From Oscillospiraceae bacterium (lineage in GTDB: Bacteria > Bacillota > Clostridia > Oscillospirales > Ruminococcaceae): 64,000 nucleotides of DNA. Made by a program: the position numbers and the translations under genes. The stretch spans positions 310,001 to 374,000 of the forward strand of contig BQOK01000001.1 of the NCBI GenBank assembly GCA_022835495.1, written 5' to 3'. The notes under the pieces are model-generated. The model was not told where the DNA came from, made no database searches, and was given only the letters and a program-made list of their open reading frames with translations. This document shows positions 57,362 through 64,000 of the stretch, one piece after another (the first letter of the stretch is position 1; each line of letters starts with the position of its first letter).

Positions 57362-58078
57362 ATGCGTTTTGCGGTGTGCGACAACCAACAAAAATTTGTG
57401 GACAGGGCCATGGAAGCGGTGCGGCGCTATGTGACCGAAAAGGGCGAAACGTTCGAGGGCGAAGGCTTTACCGACCCGGAGGCGTTGGCGGCCTGCTGCC
57501 GCCGGGAACTGTTCGACGCGATCGTGCTGGATGTGGAGATGCCCGGAAAGAACGGGATTGAAACCGCGCAGGAGATCCACGCGGTTCAACCCAACGTGCC
57601 TATTATTTTTATGACCTCGTTTATCCAATACGGCCCGGAGAGCCTGAAGGTGAATGCGTTCCGCTATGTTTTGAAGCAAAATTTCGAGGTGGATTTCCCC
57701 GATGCGCTGGACGCGCTGTGGCAAAAGCTGTTTCCACCCCGGCACACCCTCTGGCTGGACGTGGAGGGGCACCGCCAGGAATTTGAGGTGGAGCAGATCG
57801 TGAGCATTGAAGTGCAGTCGCATGTTTTAAAAGTGTGCCTGGCAGGTGTGGAACAGCCGGTTTCGGCGAAGGGGCCCACGCTCACCGAATTGGCCGAAAT
57901 GCTGGAGCCAAAAGGGTTTGTGCGCCCCCACAACAGTTTTCTCATCAATATGGCGCATATTTGCCGCATTGAAAAGGATGTTTTTGTTTTGGATAGCGGC
58001 AGTGTGATCCGGGGCAGCCAGCGGTATTATGTGGAAGCCAGGCGGCACTATGTGCTTTGGAGGGGGGAACGGCTGTGA
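57362..58078 (+). CDS. LytTR-family response regulator (AgrA-like)
   Basis: 238 residues from ATG 57362 (TTTTGGAGGATATC upstream). Receiver domain (about 1-120) with the phospho-accepting Asp57 in L-D-V-E-M-P-G and an M-T-S-F segment; a LytTR DNA-binding domain (about 140-235) with V-E-Q-I-V-S-I-E-V, F-V-R-P-H-N-S-F-L-I-N and the closing basic end. Its stop overlaps the kinase start. Pairing with AgrB/AgrD and an AgrC-type kinase identifies the system as agr-like. Confidence 0.93.
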   Translation: MRFAVCDNQQKFVDRAMEAVRRYVTEKGETFEGEGFTDPEALAACCRRELFDAIVLDVEMPGKNGIETAQEIHAVQPNVPIIFMTSFIQYGPESLKVNAFRYVLKQNFEVDFPDALDALWQKLFPPRHTLWLDVEGHRQEFEVEQIVSIEVQSHVLKVCLAGVEQPVSAKGPTLTELAEMLEPKGFVRPHNSFLINMAHICRIEKDVFVLDSGSVIRGSQRYYVEARRHYVLWRGERL

Positions 58079-59424
58079 GCGATTTTTACAGCGCGCTGAT
58101 CAGCACGGGGATCATGCTGGCCGAAGCCTGGGCCATGGTGCTGACCTGGGACGCGTTCGCCCTGCGCCGCCGCACCGCTTGGAAGTTTTGGGGCGCCGTT
58201 CTGGCGGTAACGATCTTCAATGCATTCTTTTTAAATTTTCATGAATATGGACATCTTACAAAGGCACTTTATACAATTTGTATATGGTTTGTTTGTACTT
58301 GGGCGCTATATAAAAGCAAGTGGTATGTACTTCTGTTTGCGGTGGTCTTATCCATTGTATTGCTGCAGGCTGTGGACAATGCGGTTTTTATGGGCTGCTC
58401 GATGCTCACGGGGGCTTCTCCGGCTGCCTTGTTCCAGGGCTACGTCTCTTTTATGATTCTGACAACATTGGGTAAAACGCTGGAAATTTTGCTGGCATAT
58501 ATTCTGAAACGTCAGTTTGGGCGCAGGTTGGGCTACCCGCAAAAGGACTGGCGTTCCTGGCTGCAAACGCTGCCTTTGCCCCTCACAGCCTGCGGCTTCA
58601 TGGCGGCATCTGTGGGATTTGCGCAAAAATATCCCGACAGTGCGTCGGCTTTGCTGGGATGCACGGCGGCGCTGCTGCTTGCCAGCATTCTGCAGGTGTC
58701 GATCGTGGGGCAGTTGGACAAGCAGCGCGCTGCACAACAGGAACAGCAGAGGCTGCGGCAAAACCAGGAGTGGCAGCAGGAACGCACCCAGGCGCTGCGC
58801 ACGGCTTACGCGGACCAGCGCCGCCTGACCCACGATTTTCAAAATCATCTATTGCTGCTGCTGGGCTTGCTGCACCAAGATAAAACTGACGAAGCGGTGG
58901 AAATGCTGGAGAACTTGCAGGAACAGGTGCTGCACACCGCCCAGGTGGTGGATACGCAGAACCCTTTACTGGATGCGATCCTGAACCAGAAATATGCGGC
59001 CGCGCGCGAGTGCGGCGTGACGCTGCAATTCGATCTGCACAACCCCGCGGCATTTCAAATGGACCCGCAGGACGCGGCAGTGGTGTTGGGCAACCTGTTG
59101 GACAATGCCATTGAGGCGGCCCGCCAGGCGACGGACCCGCAAAAGGTGATCTTCAAGCTTCACGTGGAGCCGGAGGAGGCGGTGCTGGCGGTAAAAAACA
59201 CAGTGGCGGCCCCCGTGAAGCTGGTGGACGGCTGGGTGCAGGGCAGCACCAAGGCGGACAGCCGCGCCCACGGCTATGGTTTGCGCAATGTGCGCGAAAC
59301 AGTGCGGCGCTGCGGGGGCGAGATCAGCCTTTCCTGCAAGGAGGGCTGGTTCACCGCGGCGGCAATTTTGCCGCAAAAACAATCACTTACGCTAAAACAC
59401 CCATCACTTGCGTCAAATTGCTGA
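58075..59424 (+). CDS. Membrane sensor histidine kinase (AgrC-like, GHKL type)
   Basis: 449 residues from GTG 58075, overlapping the regulator stop. Six or so transmembrane helices in the first 210 residues, then a Gln-rich coiled linker. His253 in L-T-H-D-F-Q-N-H is the likely phosphorylation site, and N-L-L-D-N-A-I-E-A-A near 345 plus G-Y-G-L-R-N-V near 402 are the N and G boxes of a GHKL ATPase. It should sense the cyclic peptide made from AgrD and pass phosphate to the LytTR regulator. Confidence 0.92.
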   Translation: MSDFYSALISTGIMLAEAWAMVLTWDAFALRRRTAWKFWGAVLAVTIFNAFFLNFHEYGHLTKALYTICIWFVCTWALYKSKWYVLLFAVVLSIVLLQAVDNAVFMGCSMLTGASPAALFQGYVSFMILTTLGKTLEILLAYILKRQFGRRLGYPQKDWRSWLQTLPLPLTACGFMAASVGFAQKYPDSASALLGCTAALLLASILQVSIVGQLDKQRAAQQEQQRLRQNQEWQQERTQALRTAYADQRRLTHDFQNHLLLLLGLLHQDKTDEAVEMLENLQEQVLHTAQVVDTQNPLLDAILNQKYAAARECGVTLQFDLHNPAAFQMDPQDAAVVLGNLLDNAIEAARQATDPQKVIFKLHVEPEEAVLAVKNTVAAPVKLVDGWVQGSTKADSRAHGYGLRNVRETVRRCGGEISLSCKEGWFTAAAILPQKQSLTLKHPSLASNC

Positions 59425-59474: not shown

Positions 59475-60068
59475 ATGCACGCCTTGGCAAACGGGATAAC
59501 GTCTTTTTTTATTGACCGCGGATTGCTGGACGAAGAGCACCGCCCCTGGTACGTGTATGCGCTGGAAAGCAAGCTGGGGCAGGGCGCAACGGTTCTTTTT
59601 ACCCTGGCGGCGGGTTGGCTGCAGGGGCGGCCCTTGCAGCCCCTGCTGGTGCTGCTGGCGGCCATGTTCCTGCGCCAGCGGGCAGGGGGCTGGCACGCCC
59701 CTACCGCCTGGCTGTGCCAGATCATTTCGGTGGGGTCAGCATTGCTGGGCAGTTTTGCCGCGGCCTGGTGCGCCGGGCACCGGCCCTGGCTTTGGATGGG
59801 GGCATTGCTGGCGGCTTCGGGTTTGGTGATATGGCTGCTGGCCCCCGCCGAGCACCCCAACCTGCCCCTGACCCCTGCCGAGCTTGCGGCAAACCGGCGG
59901 CTGGCGCGCCAGCGGCTGGCACTGGCAGCCATTGCCGCTGTGCTGCTGCAAACGCTGTTCCCATTCAGGCCCGAGGGCCTGTGCGCCGCGGCTGGTGTTC
60001 TGTTGGCCGCTGTGGGCGTGCTGGCCCAAACAATACAGCAGGAGGTAATGGAACATGCAAAACTTTAA
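59475..60068 (+). CDS. agrB: AgrB-type peptide-processing membrane protease
   Basis: 197 residues, about five hydrophobic segments. The AgrB motif R-A-G-G-W-H-A-P-T gives His74, and Cys81 follows seven residues later, the same spacing as the catalytic His77/Cys84 of staphylococcal AgrB. A-P-A-E-H-P-N-L-P-L near 135 matches the conserved A-P-x5-N-x-P block. It cleaves the AgrD precursor and closes the thiolactone ring. Its last 14 bases overlap the agrD start. Confidence 0.94.
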   Translation: MHALANGITSFFIDRGLLDEEHRPWYVYALESKLGQGATVLFTLAAGWLQGRPLQPLLVLLAAMFLRQRAGGWHAPTAWLCQIISVGSALLGSFAAAWCAGHRPWLWMGALLAASGLVIWLLAPAEHPNLPLTPAELAANRRLARQRLALAAIAAVLLQTLFPFRPEGLCAAAGVLLAAVGVLAQTIQQEVMEHAKL

Positions 60069-60234
60069 GAAAAAAGCGAATCTGGCGGCGGCCAACTGGG
60101 TGCGCAAGATCGGACGGGCAGCGATGGAGAAGTGGCCCCCAGATTGTTATGGAATCAGTTTTCAGCCCCAGCACCCTGCGCGCCCCGAACACGAAAAGAT
60201 GCAGACACCGACCGGCAAAAAAGCACGCCTTTAA
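60055..60234 (+). CDS. agrD: AgrD-like autoinducing peptide precursor
   Basis: 59 residues, ATG 60055 inside the end of agrB, with AGGAGGT eight bases before it. The order fits AgrD: a Lys-rich amphipathic N-terminal part (1-27), the single Cys31 opening the core C-Y-G-I-S-F, then a Pro- and charge-rich tail beginning Q-P-Q-H-P. Ring closure of Cys31 onto a residue near Phe36 is predicted. The tail is longer and more basic than in staphylococcal AgrD. The identity rests on position after agrB and on this layout. Confidence 0.85.
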   Translation: MQNFKKKANLAAANWVRKIGRAAMEKWPPDCYGISFQPQHPARPEHEKMQTPTGKKARL

Positions 60235-60255: not shown

Positions 60256-60504
60256 GTGAAACGTTGGTATTATTGGCTTCCACCGGCAGTGGCGGGCGGT
60301 GCGCTGCTGCTTTGCAGCGCACCCTTGGGCTTTGGGACCGCAAGCTTGCTGCCTGCGGTCCCCGATGAGGTCTATCTGGCCCTGCTGAAAAGCTGCATCG
60401 GTTCGTTCCAGCTGCTGGGGGTAGTGCTGCTGCTTGCAGCGGCTTTGAACTATGCGACCCGGAACAGCGACGGCAGCAAAACGGTGGTTATGGTGAAACA
60501 GTAG
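60256..60504 (+). CDS. Small two-helix membrane protein of the agr operon
   Basis: 82 residues from GTG 60256 (AAGGGAGATC upstream), 21 bases after agrD. Two hydrophobic helices (about 5-28 and 40-64) and a short polar tail. No family recognised. Its place in the operon suggests a helper for AgrB or an immunity-like function; this is inference. Confidence 0.75.
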   Translation: MKRWYYWLPPAVAGGALLLCSAPLGFGTASLLPAVPDEVYLALLKSCIGSFQLLGVVLLLAAALNYATRNSDGSKTVVMVKQ

Positions 60505-60584
60505 GTTCTTTTGGTTCGCCCGGGGGCCAGCGTACGGGGCACCCCGGAAAAGCATAAAAGCATATTTTATAGGAGGTAAAAATT
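60503..60584 (+). promoter_or_regulatory. Structured leader, copy A
   Basis: About 82 bases that recur with about 75-80% identity at 62605-62686. It contains the hairpin CCGGGG (60520-60525) / CCCCGG (60542-60547) around a 16-base loop with AGCGTACG, and ends in ATAGGAGGTAAAAATT before the ATG of a secreted-protein gene. Confidence 0.75.
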
Positions 60585-61175
60585 ATGAAGAAAACGAAGA
60601 GATTGCTGGCGACGTTAACGTTTGTGGCTGTTGTATCAGTTGTGTTTTTAGCTGCCCCAGCTTCAGCTTTAAATGTAGGAAGTACGCGGGCTATGAATAC
60701 ACCATCGCATTTCTTTTGTTATGGCGCAAGTGGCACAGCATCTCCGAACAGCGAGTACCTTAACTTGGAAGGTAACGGGCTGGCTTATAACCATAGATCA
60801 GTAACTAGAGCATCCAGAACAAACTCTCCAGACCAGATGTGGTATTTTTCTTATAGTGCCCTTGACAATGTACCGAAGGTGTATTCTGCACAGAAAGATG
60901 CAAATGGAAATACGGGTTATACACTTAACTTACTCCGCAGTACACAATCGAATGGACGCTATAAATGTGATATTTATCGTGAAACAAGCAATGATCCCAA
61001 CACGTTTGATTCGGATGTTACGTACGTGATGGATGGAGATGTGGGGGCTTTCAAAATTCTTATGGTGAATTATAATACATGTTTGACACCCGAAAGCCAA
61101 TCCCGCAATCTTTACTGGGCACCTAGGGATAGTTCGTTAAATAGCAATCAGCTTTGGAATAAAGAAAATTCGTAA
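60585..61175 (+). CDS. Secreted protein of cassette 1 (beta-trefoil-like features)
   Basis: 196 residues. Signal peptide of about 29 residues ending A-P-A-S-A. The mature part holds repeated N-G-N/S-N-G stretches and a Q-M-W-Y-F and Q-L-W pair, reminiscent of the Q-x-W motifs of ricin-type beta-trefoil lectins, with about two repeats instead of three. Codons are AT-rich, unlike the rest of the window. ATAGGAGGT stands before the ATG. No enzyme motif is seen; a signalling, adhesion or antimicrobial role is open. Confidence 0.75.
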   Translation: MKKTKRLLATLTFVAVVSVVFLAAPASALNVGSTRAMNTPSHFFCYGASGTASPNSEYLNLEGNGLAYNHRSVTRASRTNSPDQMWYFSYSALDNVPKVYSAQKDANGNTGYTLNLLRSTQSNGRYKCDIYRETSNDPNTFDSDVTYVMDGDVGAFKILMVNYNTCLTPESQSRNLYWAPRDSSLNSNQLWNKENS

Positions 61176-62491
61176 TGAAAAGGATTTCAATATTCGCAGT
61201 TGTTTTTTCTATGGTAGTTGTTTGTCTTTTGTTTGGCTGCCAGAAAGAGCCTGGACCTGCGGGCTCCGCCAATGGTGCCGATCCCGTATCCGGCGCCGCG
61301 GCAGAGCCCCAAGCCCACATATCCGGGCTTTATTCGCTGCAGGGGTTTGACGGCTGGGTGTATGGAGCCGGGGGAGACAACGGATATTACAGTATATCAG
61401 CGGCCGTACAGGCTGACGGCTCTACAAATATTCAATATACAGACTACGAAACAATGCAGACCGTTCCGCTTTGTGCACAGGTGAATTGTACCCATAATAC
61501 AGAAACGTGTACAAGCTGGCTTCCCTATAACGGCGGAGGCACCTCATTGATGATGGTTGGCGATGAATTGCTTTTGGTTTCACCAGGCCAGCCGGTTTCG
61601 TATGAAGCGTTAAAAGAACGTAGTTTTCCGCACATTGAAGTTTGTGAAGCAGATGGTTCTGAACGCAGAAAAATAGTAGAGTTTTCGGCAAATCAACAAT
61701 TAAAGCCCCCTTATCTCACGGATGGGAAAAATCTTTACTGTGTGCTTCAAACAGCAACAGAAGAGGAAGAGACACTTGAGTTGATGCAGGTGAGCTTATC
61801 TGAAAGAAGCTGCTCTACCATCACCTTGCTGGATCAGTCGAAAGCCGAAAAGATTTGGGGAGCCGCCGGAGAATATATTTTGCTGAATGCACTGGCTATT
61901 CCCGGAGAAGAAGCCATTGCACAAATGGACTATAGTGTTCAGATAACAAGGCTCAACATAAACACCCTGGAAAAAGAACTGCTTTTAGAATACAAAATAG
62001 ATGAATGCCGGGCGGCAGTATTTGACCAAACCATCGTGTATTATGACCAAAAAACAGATAGAATAGTGTTGATCGACAGTATTACAAAGGAAAGCCAAGT
62101 GATTGCAGAGGATTTTCTGCAAGATGAAGGATCCCTGTACGATCTTAATTTGATTTTTTATGATGACTCAAAGCTGCTCACATCCACCATAGTGCAAGAT
62201 AAAAGTGGTCGTCAACAGAGGGAATTCCAAATTTTGGATGCTGCTAATAAGAAACTTTACAACAGTGAGCTTTATTACGTGGCAAACGACAGAAACCTTC
62301 CGATCGTGCCTATCGCAGAAATTGAAAAGGAAAACAGCTATTTTATTATTTATAATGAAACGGTGAAGCAAAGCCAGGGAGTTGCGGAAGAAGGAAACGG
62401 GTATTACATGGTTTCTTCTACGCCTCAATATGGAAAAATAACGAAAGAAGATTATTGGCTGGGAATAAAAGAAATAAAAGCGGAACAGTAG
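61175..62491 (+). CDS. Lipoprotein of cassette 1
   Basis: 438 residues, ATG sharing a base with the preceding stop. Signal peptide with lipobox L-F-G-C (Cys22), Gly/Ala/Pro linker, then a domain with S-T-N-I-Q-Y-T-D-Y and L-C-A-Q-V-N-C-T-H-N-x4-C-T-S-W near 95-110, and a long remainder that may be a beta-propeller. The same Cys/His pattern occurs in the lipoprotein of cassette 2. It is anchored outside the membrane. Function unknown. Confidence 0.85.
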   Translation: MKRISIFAVVFSMVVVCLLFGCQKEPGPAGSANGADPVSGAAAEPQAHISGLYSLQGFDGWVYGAGGDNGYYSISAAVQADGSTNIQYTDYETMQTVPLCAQVNCTHNTETCTSWLPYNGGGTSLMMVGDELLLVSPGQPVSYEALKERSFPHIEVCEADGSERRKIVEFSANQQLKPPYLTDGKNLYCVLQTATEEEETLELMQVSLSERSCSTITLLDQSKAEKIWGAAGEYILLNALAIPGEEAIAQMDYSVQITRLNINTLEKELLLEYKIDECRAAVFDQTIVYYDQKTDRIVLIDSITKESQVIAEDFLQDEGSLYDLNLIFYDDSKLLTSTIVQDKSGRQQREFQILDAANKKLYNSELYYVANDRNLPIVPIAEIEKENSYFIIYNETVKQSQGVAEEGNGYYMVSSTPQYGKITKEDYWLGIKEIKAEQ

Positions 62492-62604
62492 TTTCAACTC
62501 ACAGAGACGCGATTCAAAACGGTAAAATGGTTTACGATATTAAGTGGCAACGCTGAACCAGATAATCGGAACAACGATATAAAAATAGCAATCATAGTAA
62601 AACT

Positions 62605-62686
62605 GTAGATCCTTTTGGTCCGCCCGAGGGCGAGCGTACGAAGCACCTCGGAAAACATAAAGAATAATTTTACGGGAGGTAAAATC
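62605..62686 (+). promoter_or_regulatory. Structured leader, copy B
   Basis: Second copy of the leader. The hairpin arms are CCGAGG (62624-62629) / CCTCGG (62646-62651): the G-C pair of copy A is an A-T pair here, with the loop AGCGTACG kept. It ends in ACGGGAGGTAAAATC before the next secreted-protein gene. Confidence 0.75.
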
Positions 62687-63214
62687 ATGAGATGCAAGAT
62701 GTCTAAAAAAGCGTTGTGCCTATGCATGGTGGTGGTGCTTGCCATCGGCCTGGCAATCCCGACGTTCGCTCTTATTGAGCCAACTGGCGACTTTGCAGAT
62801 TGGATTTTTGGATGGCAGGGGAGTGGACAGACGGCTCTTCTTAAGGGACATGGTATAAACAACAATTTTACTGTCGGTACAAGCAACCAAGGCGGTAATG
62901 ATGTCTGGTATGTTGATAGTAGTGGAGGAGATTATACAATAAAATCAGGAGACCGGGCATATTGTGCTAACATTTATCGTGTGTTGCAGAGCGGAACTTA
63001 CTATCCCTGCACCGGATATTATTATGAAAACGCAACGGGCGGGCGCGACCAACGGGTACAGTTGTTACAAGGCGGCGGGCATACCGTTGTAAGACTTGCG
63101 AGTCCAGTAATGGGCGGGAACTGGTATATGGTGGCCGACTATAGCCAACCAACCGCTGTTAGTGATGTGATTTGGTATACTGATGCGTCTGCCATGAAGG
63201 CTTGGTGGGGCTAA
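62687..63214 (+). CDS. Secreted protein of cassette 2
   Basis: 175 residues from ATG 62687 (GGGAGGTAAAATC upstream; the frame can be read from 62615 but that lies in the leader). Signal peptide of about 29 residues ending P-T-F-A. The mature part is Gly- and Tyr-rich with two cysteines (Y-C-A-N and Y-P-C-T-G) that could form a disulfide. Its sequence is only weakly like the cassette 1 protein, but position, leader, size and the following lipoprotein are the same. Confidence 0.78.
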   Translation: MRCKMSKKALCLCMVVVLAIGLAIPTFALIEPTGDFADWIFGWQGSGQTALLKGHGINNNFTVGTSNQGGNDVWYVDSSGGDYTIKSGDRAYCANIYRVLQSGTYYPCTGYYYENATGGRDQRVQLLQGGGHTVVRLASPVMGGNWYMVADYSQPTAVSDVIWYTDASAMKAWWG

Positions 63215-63220
63215 CATCTT

Positions 63221-63262
63221 TGTGGTAAGCCGGATACTGTATACAGTATCCGGCTTACCACA
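63221..63262 (+). repeat. Perfect 42-base palindrome between the two cassette 2 genes
   Basis: The 21-base arm starting TGTGGTAAGCCGG is followed at once by its exact reverse complement ending CCGGCTTACCACA. There is no T-run, so it is a strong hairpin, possibly a partial terminator or mRNA stabiliser that sets the ratio of secreted protein to lipoprotein. Confidence 0.9.
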
Positions 63263-63286
63263 CTATTATATTAAGGAGAATTTTAG

Positions 63287-64000
63287 GTGCAAAAGAAAAC
63301 AGCTTCAATTTTGCTTTGTATGCCTTTCCTGTTTCTTTGCGGGTGCGCGGTTTCTGCCTCTTCGCAAGTTCAAGCAACGACATCCAAGGACTTAGAAACA
63401 GAGTACACGTTATCAGGAGAGTCATTCCAAATGATTTCTTCTTTTGATCCTACCAGTTATGGAAGTGGCAATCAAAAGGGATTTTACTCTGTGTTTTTGA
63501 ACGATGACGGCTCCTCGAATATAATGTATACGGACTATGCCACGCAAACCCAGGTCTATTTGTGCGCGAAACCTAACTGTGAACATGACTCAGATGCCTG
63601 TACCTCATGGATCGCGCCTTTTGCCGGCACAATTGTTCCGGCGGCAACAGAAAAGGATTTGTTTCTCATTTACAGCAGTCGGGAAGAGCGGCCAAAAATA
63701 GAACGTCTCGAACTAAATGGTGAAAACCCTACAACTGTTTTTTCTTTGCCGGACGGCGCAAAAATTCAAAATGCTGTGGCGGCAAGTGATACTACATTGA
63801 TTGTTCAAATTGAGCAATATGAAAATGACGGACAAAACATAAAATCAAACTGCTATTTGGCTGCGATCAGCTGGGAAACAGGAAAGATTTCTGTGGTTTT
63901 TTCGTTAAACGATGAATTGGAACAACTAAAAAATAAGAAATTCCAGGCTTCTTCCATGCTCTTTTATGGAGCTACTTCGGATGCGTTGATCGTAGAAACG
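63287..64000 (+). CDS. Lipoprotein of cassette 2 (3' end outside window)
   Basis: GTG 63287 with AAGGAG upstream; 238 codons are in view and no stop is reached. Signal peptide with lipobox L-C-G-C. It keeps the cassette 1 pattern: D-G-S-S-N-I-M-Y-T-D-Y near 80, then L-C-A-K-P-N-C-E-H-D-x4-C-T-S-W. It is thus a paralogue of the 61175-62491 lipoprotein. Function unknown. Confidence 0.85.
   Translation, partial: MQKKTASILLCMPFLFLCGCAVSASSQVQATTSKDLETEYTLSGESFQMISSFDPTSYGSGNQKGFYSVFLNDDGSSNIMYTDYATQTQVYLCAKPNCEHDSDACTSWIAPFAGTIVPAATEKDLFLIYSSREERPKIERLELNGENPTTVFSLPDGAKIQNAVAASDTTLIVQIEQYENDGQNIKSNCYLAAISWETGKISVVFSLNDELEQLKNKKFQASSMLFYGATSDALIVET

What the first reader, a model, noticed from the sequence alone, without database searches (positions are those of the whole stretch)
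60503..64000. Duplicated cassette (leader, secreted protein, lipoprotein) downstream of agr
Two units follow agr in the same order. The lipoproteins share D-G-S-x-N-I-x-Y-T-D-Y and L-C-A-x2-N-C-x-H-x4-C-T-S-W, while the secreted proteins have diverged strongly. Diverging secreted parts with conserved partners recall effector/receptor or toxin/immunity pairs. Control by the adjacent agr system is inferred.
Basis: partly seen in the sequence, partly recalled or inferred. Interest (0 to 1): 0.66.

Follow-up and report, generated by a model that had tools for sequence, protein, structure and literature searches.

The report
Quorum-linked secreted effector with lipoprotein partner
Next to a cell-density sensing (agr) system, this gut-type Clostridia bacterium carries two copies of a gene pair (a small secreted protein plus a membrane-anchored partner) feeding into one pump; related gene sets elsewhere swap the secreted part, which looks like a density-controlled secreted weapon or effector together with its own protection.

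Summary
The duplicated cassette is real and is part of a larger conserved system. Order: agrACBD, small membrane protein, leader1-SEC1-LP1, leader2-SEC2-LP2, then (past the window) a decayed third LP, an ABC ATPase and a ~790-aa ABC-2 permease. SEC1 belongs to a family of small Sec-secreted, ricin-B-like beta-trefoil proteins; SEC2's fold is not established. LP is an unnamed lipoprotein family that folds as a beta-propeller. In related genomes all 23 secreted genes examined sit directly upstream of an LP. An independent contig repeats agr/SEC-LP-SEC-LP-ABC-permease. SEC and LP distances co-vary even after controlling for the ABC gene. The secreted slot can hold other proteins (C39-type peptidase, Ig-like, unknown), one of them with the same leader and signal peptide. 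A covarying leader hairpin lies upstream of many SEC genes. Best reading: agr-linked secreted effectors (bacteriocin-like) with cognate lipoprotein plus ABC self-protection, analogous to LanI/LanFEG without homology being shown. Activity, immunity and agr control are inferred.

The parts
57362..58078 (+). AgrA-like LytTR response regulator
   Evidence: Pfam Response_reg 1.1e-13 and LytTR 7e-9
58075..59424 (+). AgrC-like GHKL sensor histidine kinase
   Evidence: Pfam HATPase_c_5 1.6e-17; weak NCBIfam AgrC hit 7e-8, below its cut-off
59475..60068 (+). AgrB peptide-processing protease
   Evidence: Pfam AgrB 8.7e-26, over cut-off; the only AgrB found in this genome
60055..60234 (+). AgrD precursor, ...EKWPPDCYGISFQPQHP...
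   Evidence: overlaps the agrB end; the [C/S]-x(4-6)-xQPxxP pattern recurs in AgrD candidates of the related loci
60256..60504 (+). 82-aa small membrane protein, function unknown
   Evidence: ORF and hydrophobicity only; no family
60520..60547 (+). leader 1 hairpin CCGGGG..AGCGTACG..CCCCGG
   Evidence: duplicate of leader 2 with a compensatory stem change; only two copies in the genome; folding energy itself not exceptional
60585..61175 (+). SEC1: 196-aa Sec-secreted, ricin-B-like beta-trefoil family
   Evidence: predicted signal peptide; leave-one-out profile E 1.1e-15; 9 of 23 family members match Pfam RicinB_lectin_2, best 7e-8
61175..62491 (+). LP1: 438-aa lipoprotein, beta-propeller
   Evidence: lipobox Cys22 invariant in the family; AlphaFold2 mean pLDDT 87.7; propeller matches up to Z 17.9
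62624..62651 (+). leader 2 hairpin CCGAGG..AGCGTACG..CCTCGG
62687..63214 (+). SEC2: 175-aa secreted protein; fold not established
   Evidence: predicted signal peptide; same slot, leader and LP neighbour as SEC1; leave-one-out profile E 0.19, not significant
63221..63262 (.). perfect 19-bp inverted repeat between SEC2 and LP2, possible 3' stabiliser or attenuator
   Evidence: z -8.2; comparable stem-loops after SEC in L059, L132, L136, L140, L147
63287..64000 (+). LP2, second lipoprotein (459 aa; continues past the window to G000:C1:374666)
   Evidence: LP profile E 2e-118

Best explanation
A cell-density-linked secreted effector system. agr senses its own cyclic peptide, and SEC-LP cassettes are expressed with or under it. 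SEC is exported by Sec and acts outside the cell, most likely as a narrow-spectrum antibacterial (bacteriocin-like) protein that recognises a surface ligand through its beta-trefoil or another swapped domain. The cognate LP, a beta-propeller tethered outside the membrane, binds that SEC and, together with the shared ABC-2 exporter, keeps it off the producer (self-protection, as LanI plus LanFEG do). Each SEC travels with its own LP while the ABC-permease is common property; extra LPs without SEC would be orphan protection. Shown: gene order, pairing, co-variation of SEC and LP, folds of the SEC1 family and of LP, polymorphic cargo slot, leader hairpin, agr linkage. Inferred: antibacterial activity, SEC-LP binding, immunity, agr control.
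For: 23/23 SEC genes are followed at once by an LP; in the SEC-first search about 20 signal-peptide-bearing hits all have an LP next, while the signal-less or fused lectin-domain hits examined do not. L132 repeats agr / SEC-LP-SEC-LP-ABC-PERM. SEC-LP Mantel r 0.64; partial r 0.49 controlling for ABC, p about 0.0003, robust to dropping doubtful members; SEC/LP hardly correlate with ABC (0.14/0.05), so the pair moves as a unit. Cargo swaps with the signal peptide and leader kept: C39_2 peptidase in L134, Ig-like in L055, other small secreted proteins before LP-ABC-PERM in other families (L184, L186, L091), two with sub-threshold bacteriocin-family hits. LP-ABC-PERM core widespread. Published analogue: lipoprotein NisI plus ABC NisFEG give self-immunity (PMC4828448). 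Stem-loops just after SEC fit SEC made in excess over LP.
Against: No toxic domain is recognised; a beta-trefoil alone is a binding fold, also of adhesins and enzyme accessory domains. LP is not homologous to LanI in any test done. LP arrays without SEC are commoner than SEC-LP pairs. No AgrA-like box enrichment upstream of SEC. Some SEC-LP loci have no agr within the DNA held (L052, L136, L137, L144, L146). No transcription or activity data.
Confidence: 0.48

Rival explanations
1. Surface lectin/adhesin module: SEC is a glycan-binding protein captured by its cognate propeller lipoprotein and shown on the surface; agr switches adhesion to mucin or dietary glycans with density; the ABC transporter exports or recycles a ligand.
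For: Ricin-B-type trefoil fold; lipoprotein partner co-varies with SEC; gut-type genera.
Against: Cargo is not always a lectin (C39 peptidase, Ig-like, others); identity among SECs about 18% with mainly structural residues conserved; an ABC-2 exporter has no obvious role in adhesion; the same LP-ABC-PERM occurs without any SEC.
Confidence: 0.22
2. LP-ABC-permease is an envelope-stress or antimicrobial-resistance module whose genes recruited agr and SEC as sensor/decoy: SEC sequesters a foreign peptide or toxin and LP-ABC removes it.
For: LP-ABC-PERM is found with other regulators and no SEC in other families (L086, L087, L182, L183); an S41 peptidase lipoprotein lies downstream in the window genome, as S41-family NSR lies beside nsrFP.
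Against: Does not explain one LP per SEC nor the SEC-LP co-variation; S41 was not found in the other 20 loci compared.
Confidence: 0.15
3. SEC is a secreted protein signal and LP its receptor (second layer of density sensing), with the ABC transporter as transducer.
For: Co-varying secreted/lipoprotein pairs; agr neighbourhood.
Against: No kinase or regulator follows the LP in the window cluster; signals of this size are unusual; the cargo includes a peptidase-like protein.
Confidence: 0.08
4. Chance neighbours: agr, secreted proteins and lipoproteins have no functional link.
For: Some SEC-LP loci lack agr.
Against: Pairing 23/23, agr linkage, independent repeats of the full architecture and co-variation.
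Confidence: 0.02

Closest known systems
Lantibiotic self-immunity, LanI lipoprotein + LanFEG ABC transporter (e.g. NisI/NisFEG)
   Same: Extracellular lipoprotein plus ABC-2-type exporter beside the gene for a secreted product; density-type regulation; lipoprotein and ABC reported to act together for nisin (PMC4828448). NCBIfam lantibiotic-protection ATPase model matches the ATPase (2.6e-36) but below its cut-off.
   Different: Cargo is an unmodified Sec-secreted protein of about 150-170 aa, not a lanthipeptide; LP is a propeller with no LanI family match; one long permease instead of separate E and G; agr instead of NisRK.
Lactococcin 972-type bacteriocins
   Same: Small Sec-secreted protein followed by ABC transporter genes; the L091 cargo gives a sub-threshold lactococcin_972 hit (E 0.057).
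   Different: Cargo in the window is not of that family; permease has no match to any NCBIfam model; the propeller lipoprotein is extra.
agr-controlled exoprotein loci (Staphylococcus, Clostridium)
   Same: AgrB/D/C/A with secreted proteins as outputs.
   Different: Here cargo, lipoprotein and ABC are physically tied to agr; no Staphylococcus-type AgrA boxes enriched; RNAIII was not looked for.
Ricin-B-type beta-trefoil lectins (Pfam RicinB_lectin_2)
   Same: Fold and Q-x-W-like repeats; 9 of 23 SEC match the Pfam profile.
   Different: Stand-alone secreted single domain with strongly varied sequence, always followed by LP.
nsr nisin-resistance operon (S41 peptidase NSR + NsrFP + TCS)
   Same: ABC exporter with a membrane-associated S41 peptidase nearby.
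   Different: S41 gene found only in the window genome among the loci compared.

Membership tests
agr quorum-sensing locus | AgrB protease, AgrD-like precursor, AgrC kinase, LytTR regulator together | tested here: met
agr quorum-sensing locus | SEC transcription responds to AIP | not testable with these tools
   box scan negative; needs RNA data
Ricin-B-type beta-trefoil | significant profile match, SEC1 | tested here: met
   leave-one-out family E 1.1e-15; family tied to RicinB_lectin_2 by a member over its cut-off. SEC1 alone has no direct Pfam hit
Ricin-B-type beta-trefoil | significant profile match, SEC2 | tested here: inconclusive
   E 0.19
Ricin-B-type beta-trefoil | three-dimensional fold | tested here: inconclusive
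   AlphaFold2 of SEC1 failed with 3 sequences, pLDDT 36
beta-propeller lipoprotein | lipobox Cys and propeller fold | tested here: met
Lantibiotic immunity (LanI/LanFEG) | ATPase over the lantibiotic-protection model's cut-off | tested here: not met
   125 bits against 309.75
Lantibiotic immunity (LanI/LanFEG) | lanthipeptide precursor and modification genes | tested here: inconclusive
   none among the neighbouring genes read and scanned, but no dedicated lanthipeptide search was made
Lactococcin 972 group | cargo or permease over curated cut-off | tested here: not met
   no hit for window proteins; only a sub-threshold hit in L091
Toxin-immunity pair | toxic activity and specific neutralisation | not testable with these tools
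   needs assay

The most novel reading that the evidence does not exclude
A previously undescribed, polymorphic, agr-linked interbacterial effector system of Clostridia (centred on the Gemmiger/Fournierella family): interchangeable Sec-secreted effector domains behind a shared leader RNA and signal peptide, each paired with a co-evolving beta-propeller immunity lipoprotein that works with a shared ABC-2 exporter.
Probability: 0.42. Interest if true: 0.78.

Novelty: new variant of a known kind. Interest (0 to 1): 0.62.

Why it matters
If right, it gives a concrete output for the agr systems of gut Clostridia, whose targets are largely unknown to me, and names secreted proteins, partner lipoproteins and a pump that can be tested directly. 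It also adds a family of propeller lipoproteins and a covarying leader RNA that have no entry in the libraries searched (Pfam, NCBIfam and PHROGs for proteins; Rfam for RNA).

Tried and rejected
AlphaFold2 of SEC1 (3 sequences) failed, pLDDT 36, so no fold search was made with it. Staphylococcus-type AgrA/LytTR direct repeats upstream of SEC: fewer than in shuffles. Rfam for the leader: none. The leader hairpin model R1 does not recover the window leaders nor prove specificity in GC-rich genomes beyond the training set, although weaker hits fall at the right place in L143 and L059; the window leaders are called analogous, not homologous. L055:3006-3551 first looked like SEC but matched only by its signal peptide (rejected). 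An LP alignment of 25 sequences was too diverse for the contig search. LP in viral contigs and plasmids: none, with the limits of single-protein searches. Chance proximity rejected by pairing and linkage. Export of SEC by the ABC transporter judged unlikely: SEC has its own Sec signal peptide. Literature searches found no paper describing this system, but the library is partial.
Full report
What is there. The window (G000:C1:310001-374000) ends inside a gene cluster. Upstream is an agr set: LytTR regulator 57362-58078, GHKL kinase 58075-59424, AgrB 59475-60068 (Pfam 8.7e-26) and a 59-aa AgrD-like ORF 60055-60234 carrying ...WPPDCYGISFQPQHP. Then come a small membrane protein, leader 1, SEC1, LP1, leader 2, SEC2 and LP2. 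Past the window edge follow a decayed third LP, an ABC ATPase, a 791-aa ABC-2 permease and an S41 peptidase lipoprotein. The two leaders are duplicates, carry a compensatory stem change (CCGGGG/CCCCGG to CCGAGG/CCTCGG) and occur only twice in the genome.

Correction of the observation. The lipoproteins share a conserved N-terminal motif block (37% over 107 aa), but over the full length LP1 and LP2 are about 20% identical, no more than SEC1 and SEC2 at about 19%. So both members of the pair have diverged; the partner is not the conserved half.

What SEC is. Neither window SEC has a direct family hit. A family built from related loci does: L055:16713-17243 scores 33.5 bits against RicinB_lectin_2 (cut-off 25.6) and 9 of 23 members match it; the profile's best PDB matches include ricin-B and HA33 trefoils, all weak. 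In leave-one-out tests 21 of 23 members, including SEC1 (E 1.1e-15), are recovered; SEC2 (E 0.19) and L066 (0.79) are not. SEC1 is therefore a ricin-B-like trefoil by family membership, SEC2 undecided. AlphaFold2 on SEC1 failed for lack of sequences.

What LP is. LP has no Pfam, NCBIfam or PHROGs family. Its invariant residues are the lipobox Cys and a G-x-Y ... Y-x-D ... L-C-x4-C-x-H-x4-C block. AlphaFold2 gives an all-beta model at pLDDT 87.7 that matches beta-propellers (Foldseek to 6e-9; VIA Z up to 17.9 over about 300 residues).

Context in other genomes. LP is in 45 of 298 genomes of the family, with named relatives in Gemmiger, Fournierella, Anaerofilum and others, and sporadically in other families of the class (5 genomes other than the window's own in 391, one of them in the same family). 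In 20 loci chosen by LP alone, the commonest neighbour is the ABC ATPase plus permease (about 14), while SEC is in 6 and agr genes in about 5. LP-ABC-permease is thus the core and SEC the cargo. Seen from SEC, the picture reverses: all 23 SEC genes found are directly upstream of an LP. The 23 include a few found by reading upstream of LP genes; the SEC-first search gives about 20 signal-peptide-bearing hits, again all with LP. Lectin-domain hits without a signal peptide or fused to other domains (L148, L149, L150) have none. Contig G357:C116 (L132) has agr, then SEC-LP-SEC-LP-ABC-permease, an independent instance of the window's architecture. Outside the family, G493 (L184) has agr, another small secreted protein, LP, ABC, permease; G621 (L185) agr, LP-LP, ABC, permease; G708 (L186) a secreted protein, three LPs, ABC, permease.

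Link to agr. In 13 SEC-bearing genomes there are 15 AgrB genes. By my count, about 11 lie within 8 kb of a SEC and/or LP cassette and 13 within 13 kb. With roughly 2 cassettes per 2-3 Mb genome, well under one would be expected by chance. Some cassettes have no agr in the DNA held. A search for Staphylococcus-type AgrA boxes was negative. Control by agr stays an inference.

Pairing. Pairwise distances of SEC (mature part) and LP correlate over 23 pairs (Mantel r 0.64, p 0.0002). With the distance of the neighbouring ABC ATPase controlled for (16 pairs) the partial r is 0.49 (p about 0.0003), 0.59 without the two doubtful members, and 0.50 (p 0.004) after further dropping three more members from loci with two cassettes. 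Neither SEC nor LP correlates with the ABC gene (0.14, 0.05), so cassettes move as units. For instance L132's second pair is closest to a pair in another genus (SEC 68%, LP 48%) and only about 22% to its own neighbour. The tests do not control for every form of shared history.

A polymorphic slot and a leader RNA. In L134 the slot beside agr and LP holds a C39_2 peptidase-like protein (8.9e-15) with the same signal peptide and the same leader as trefoil-bearing loci. L142 has leader and signal peptide with a decayed ORF. Many SEC leaders contain a hairpin about 60-75 nt before the start codon, with a GYGYRC-type loop: 9 of 23 by a strict rule against 0.21 in shuffles and 3 of 102 other genes. 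In 8 aligned hairpins 8 of 9 pairs show changes on both sides; the hairpins were chosen by their pairing, so the percentage paired is biased, but the spread of pair types is not easily explained otherwise. It is not in Rfam. The window's own leaders have a similar hairpin (loop AGCGTACG, about 50 nt before the start codon) but are not matched by the model, so I call them analogous. Strong stem-loops right after the SEC stop codon occur in at least six cassettes, including SEC2 (z -8.2), which fits more SEC than LP product.

How it probably works. Secreted protein, co-varying extracellular lipoprotein and shared exporter beside a density sensor resemble bacteriocin loci with a LanI-type lipoprotein and LanFEG exporter. 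For nisin the two act together in self-immunity (PMC4828448). The swapped cargo domains, the orphan LPs and two sub-threshold bacteriocin-family hits in cargo proteins of distant loci point the same way. I put about 0.48 on an antibacterial effector with cognate LP-ABC protection and 0.22 on a surface lectin module; the rest is resistance/decoy, signalling or something else. It is not a member of the LanI/LanFEG or lactococcin 972 families by the curated cut-offs tested.

Limits. No expression or activity data. Gene calls are ORF-based, without a trained gene finder, and signal peptides were judged by a simple hydrophobicity rule. Distances to agr were read from locus coordinates rather than from a systematic test. 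The paper library is partial, so absence of a description there is not proof of novelty.

Noticed in passing
L005:11495-12778 (G000:C1:378495-379778): S41 peptidase lipoprotein 91 bp after the ABC permease; S41-family NSR has a similar place next to an ABC exporter in nisin resistance operons. Not found in the other loci compared.
   Followed up: partly
L005:7641-8200: Decayed, frame-broken third lipoprotein copy between LP2 and the ABC ATPase.
   Followed up: partly
window 63221-63262: Perfect 19-bp inverted repeat between SEC2 and LP2; unrelated but strong stem-loops follow SEC in L059, L132, L136, L140 and L147.
   Followed up: partly
L141:2290-2425, L138:9824-9960, L066:8110-8246, L134:8505-8640, L055:16580-16712: An upstream leader element (ACARGAAAGGGU..ACCCGGGAA..GACCACGACUUGU) with two mutually exclusive pairings lies before the loop hairpin; may be a switch-like RNA.
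   Followed up: partly
L142:9600-9910: Leader and signal peptide close to those of a SEC gene (L052) but followed by a decayed ORF and no LP.
   Followed up: partly
L049:11475-11933 and L052:11639-12079: A second family of ~150-aa secreted proteins beside PadR-like regulators close to LP clusters.
   Followed up: no
L085, L089, L092, L098: Gemmiger-type LP arrays preceded by a sensor kinase and, in most, a ~290-aa secreted or membrane-anchored protein, without the ABC transporter.
   Followed up: no
L151:202-7961 and L147:5784-6821: agr genes next to peptidase or amidase proteins carrying a ricin-B-like lectin domain.
   Followed up: no
window 60256-60504: 82-aa membrane protein between agrD and leader 1, no family.
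   Followed up: no
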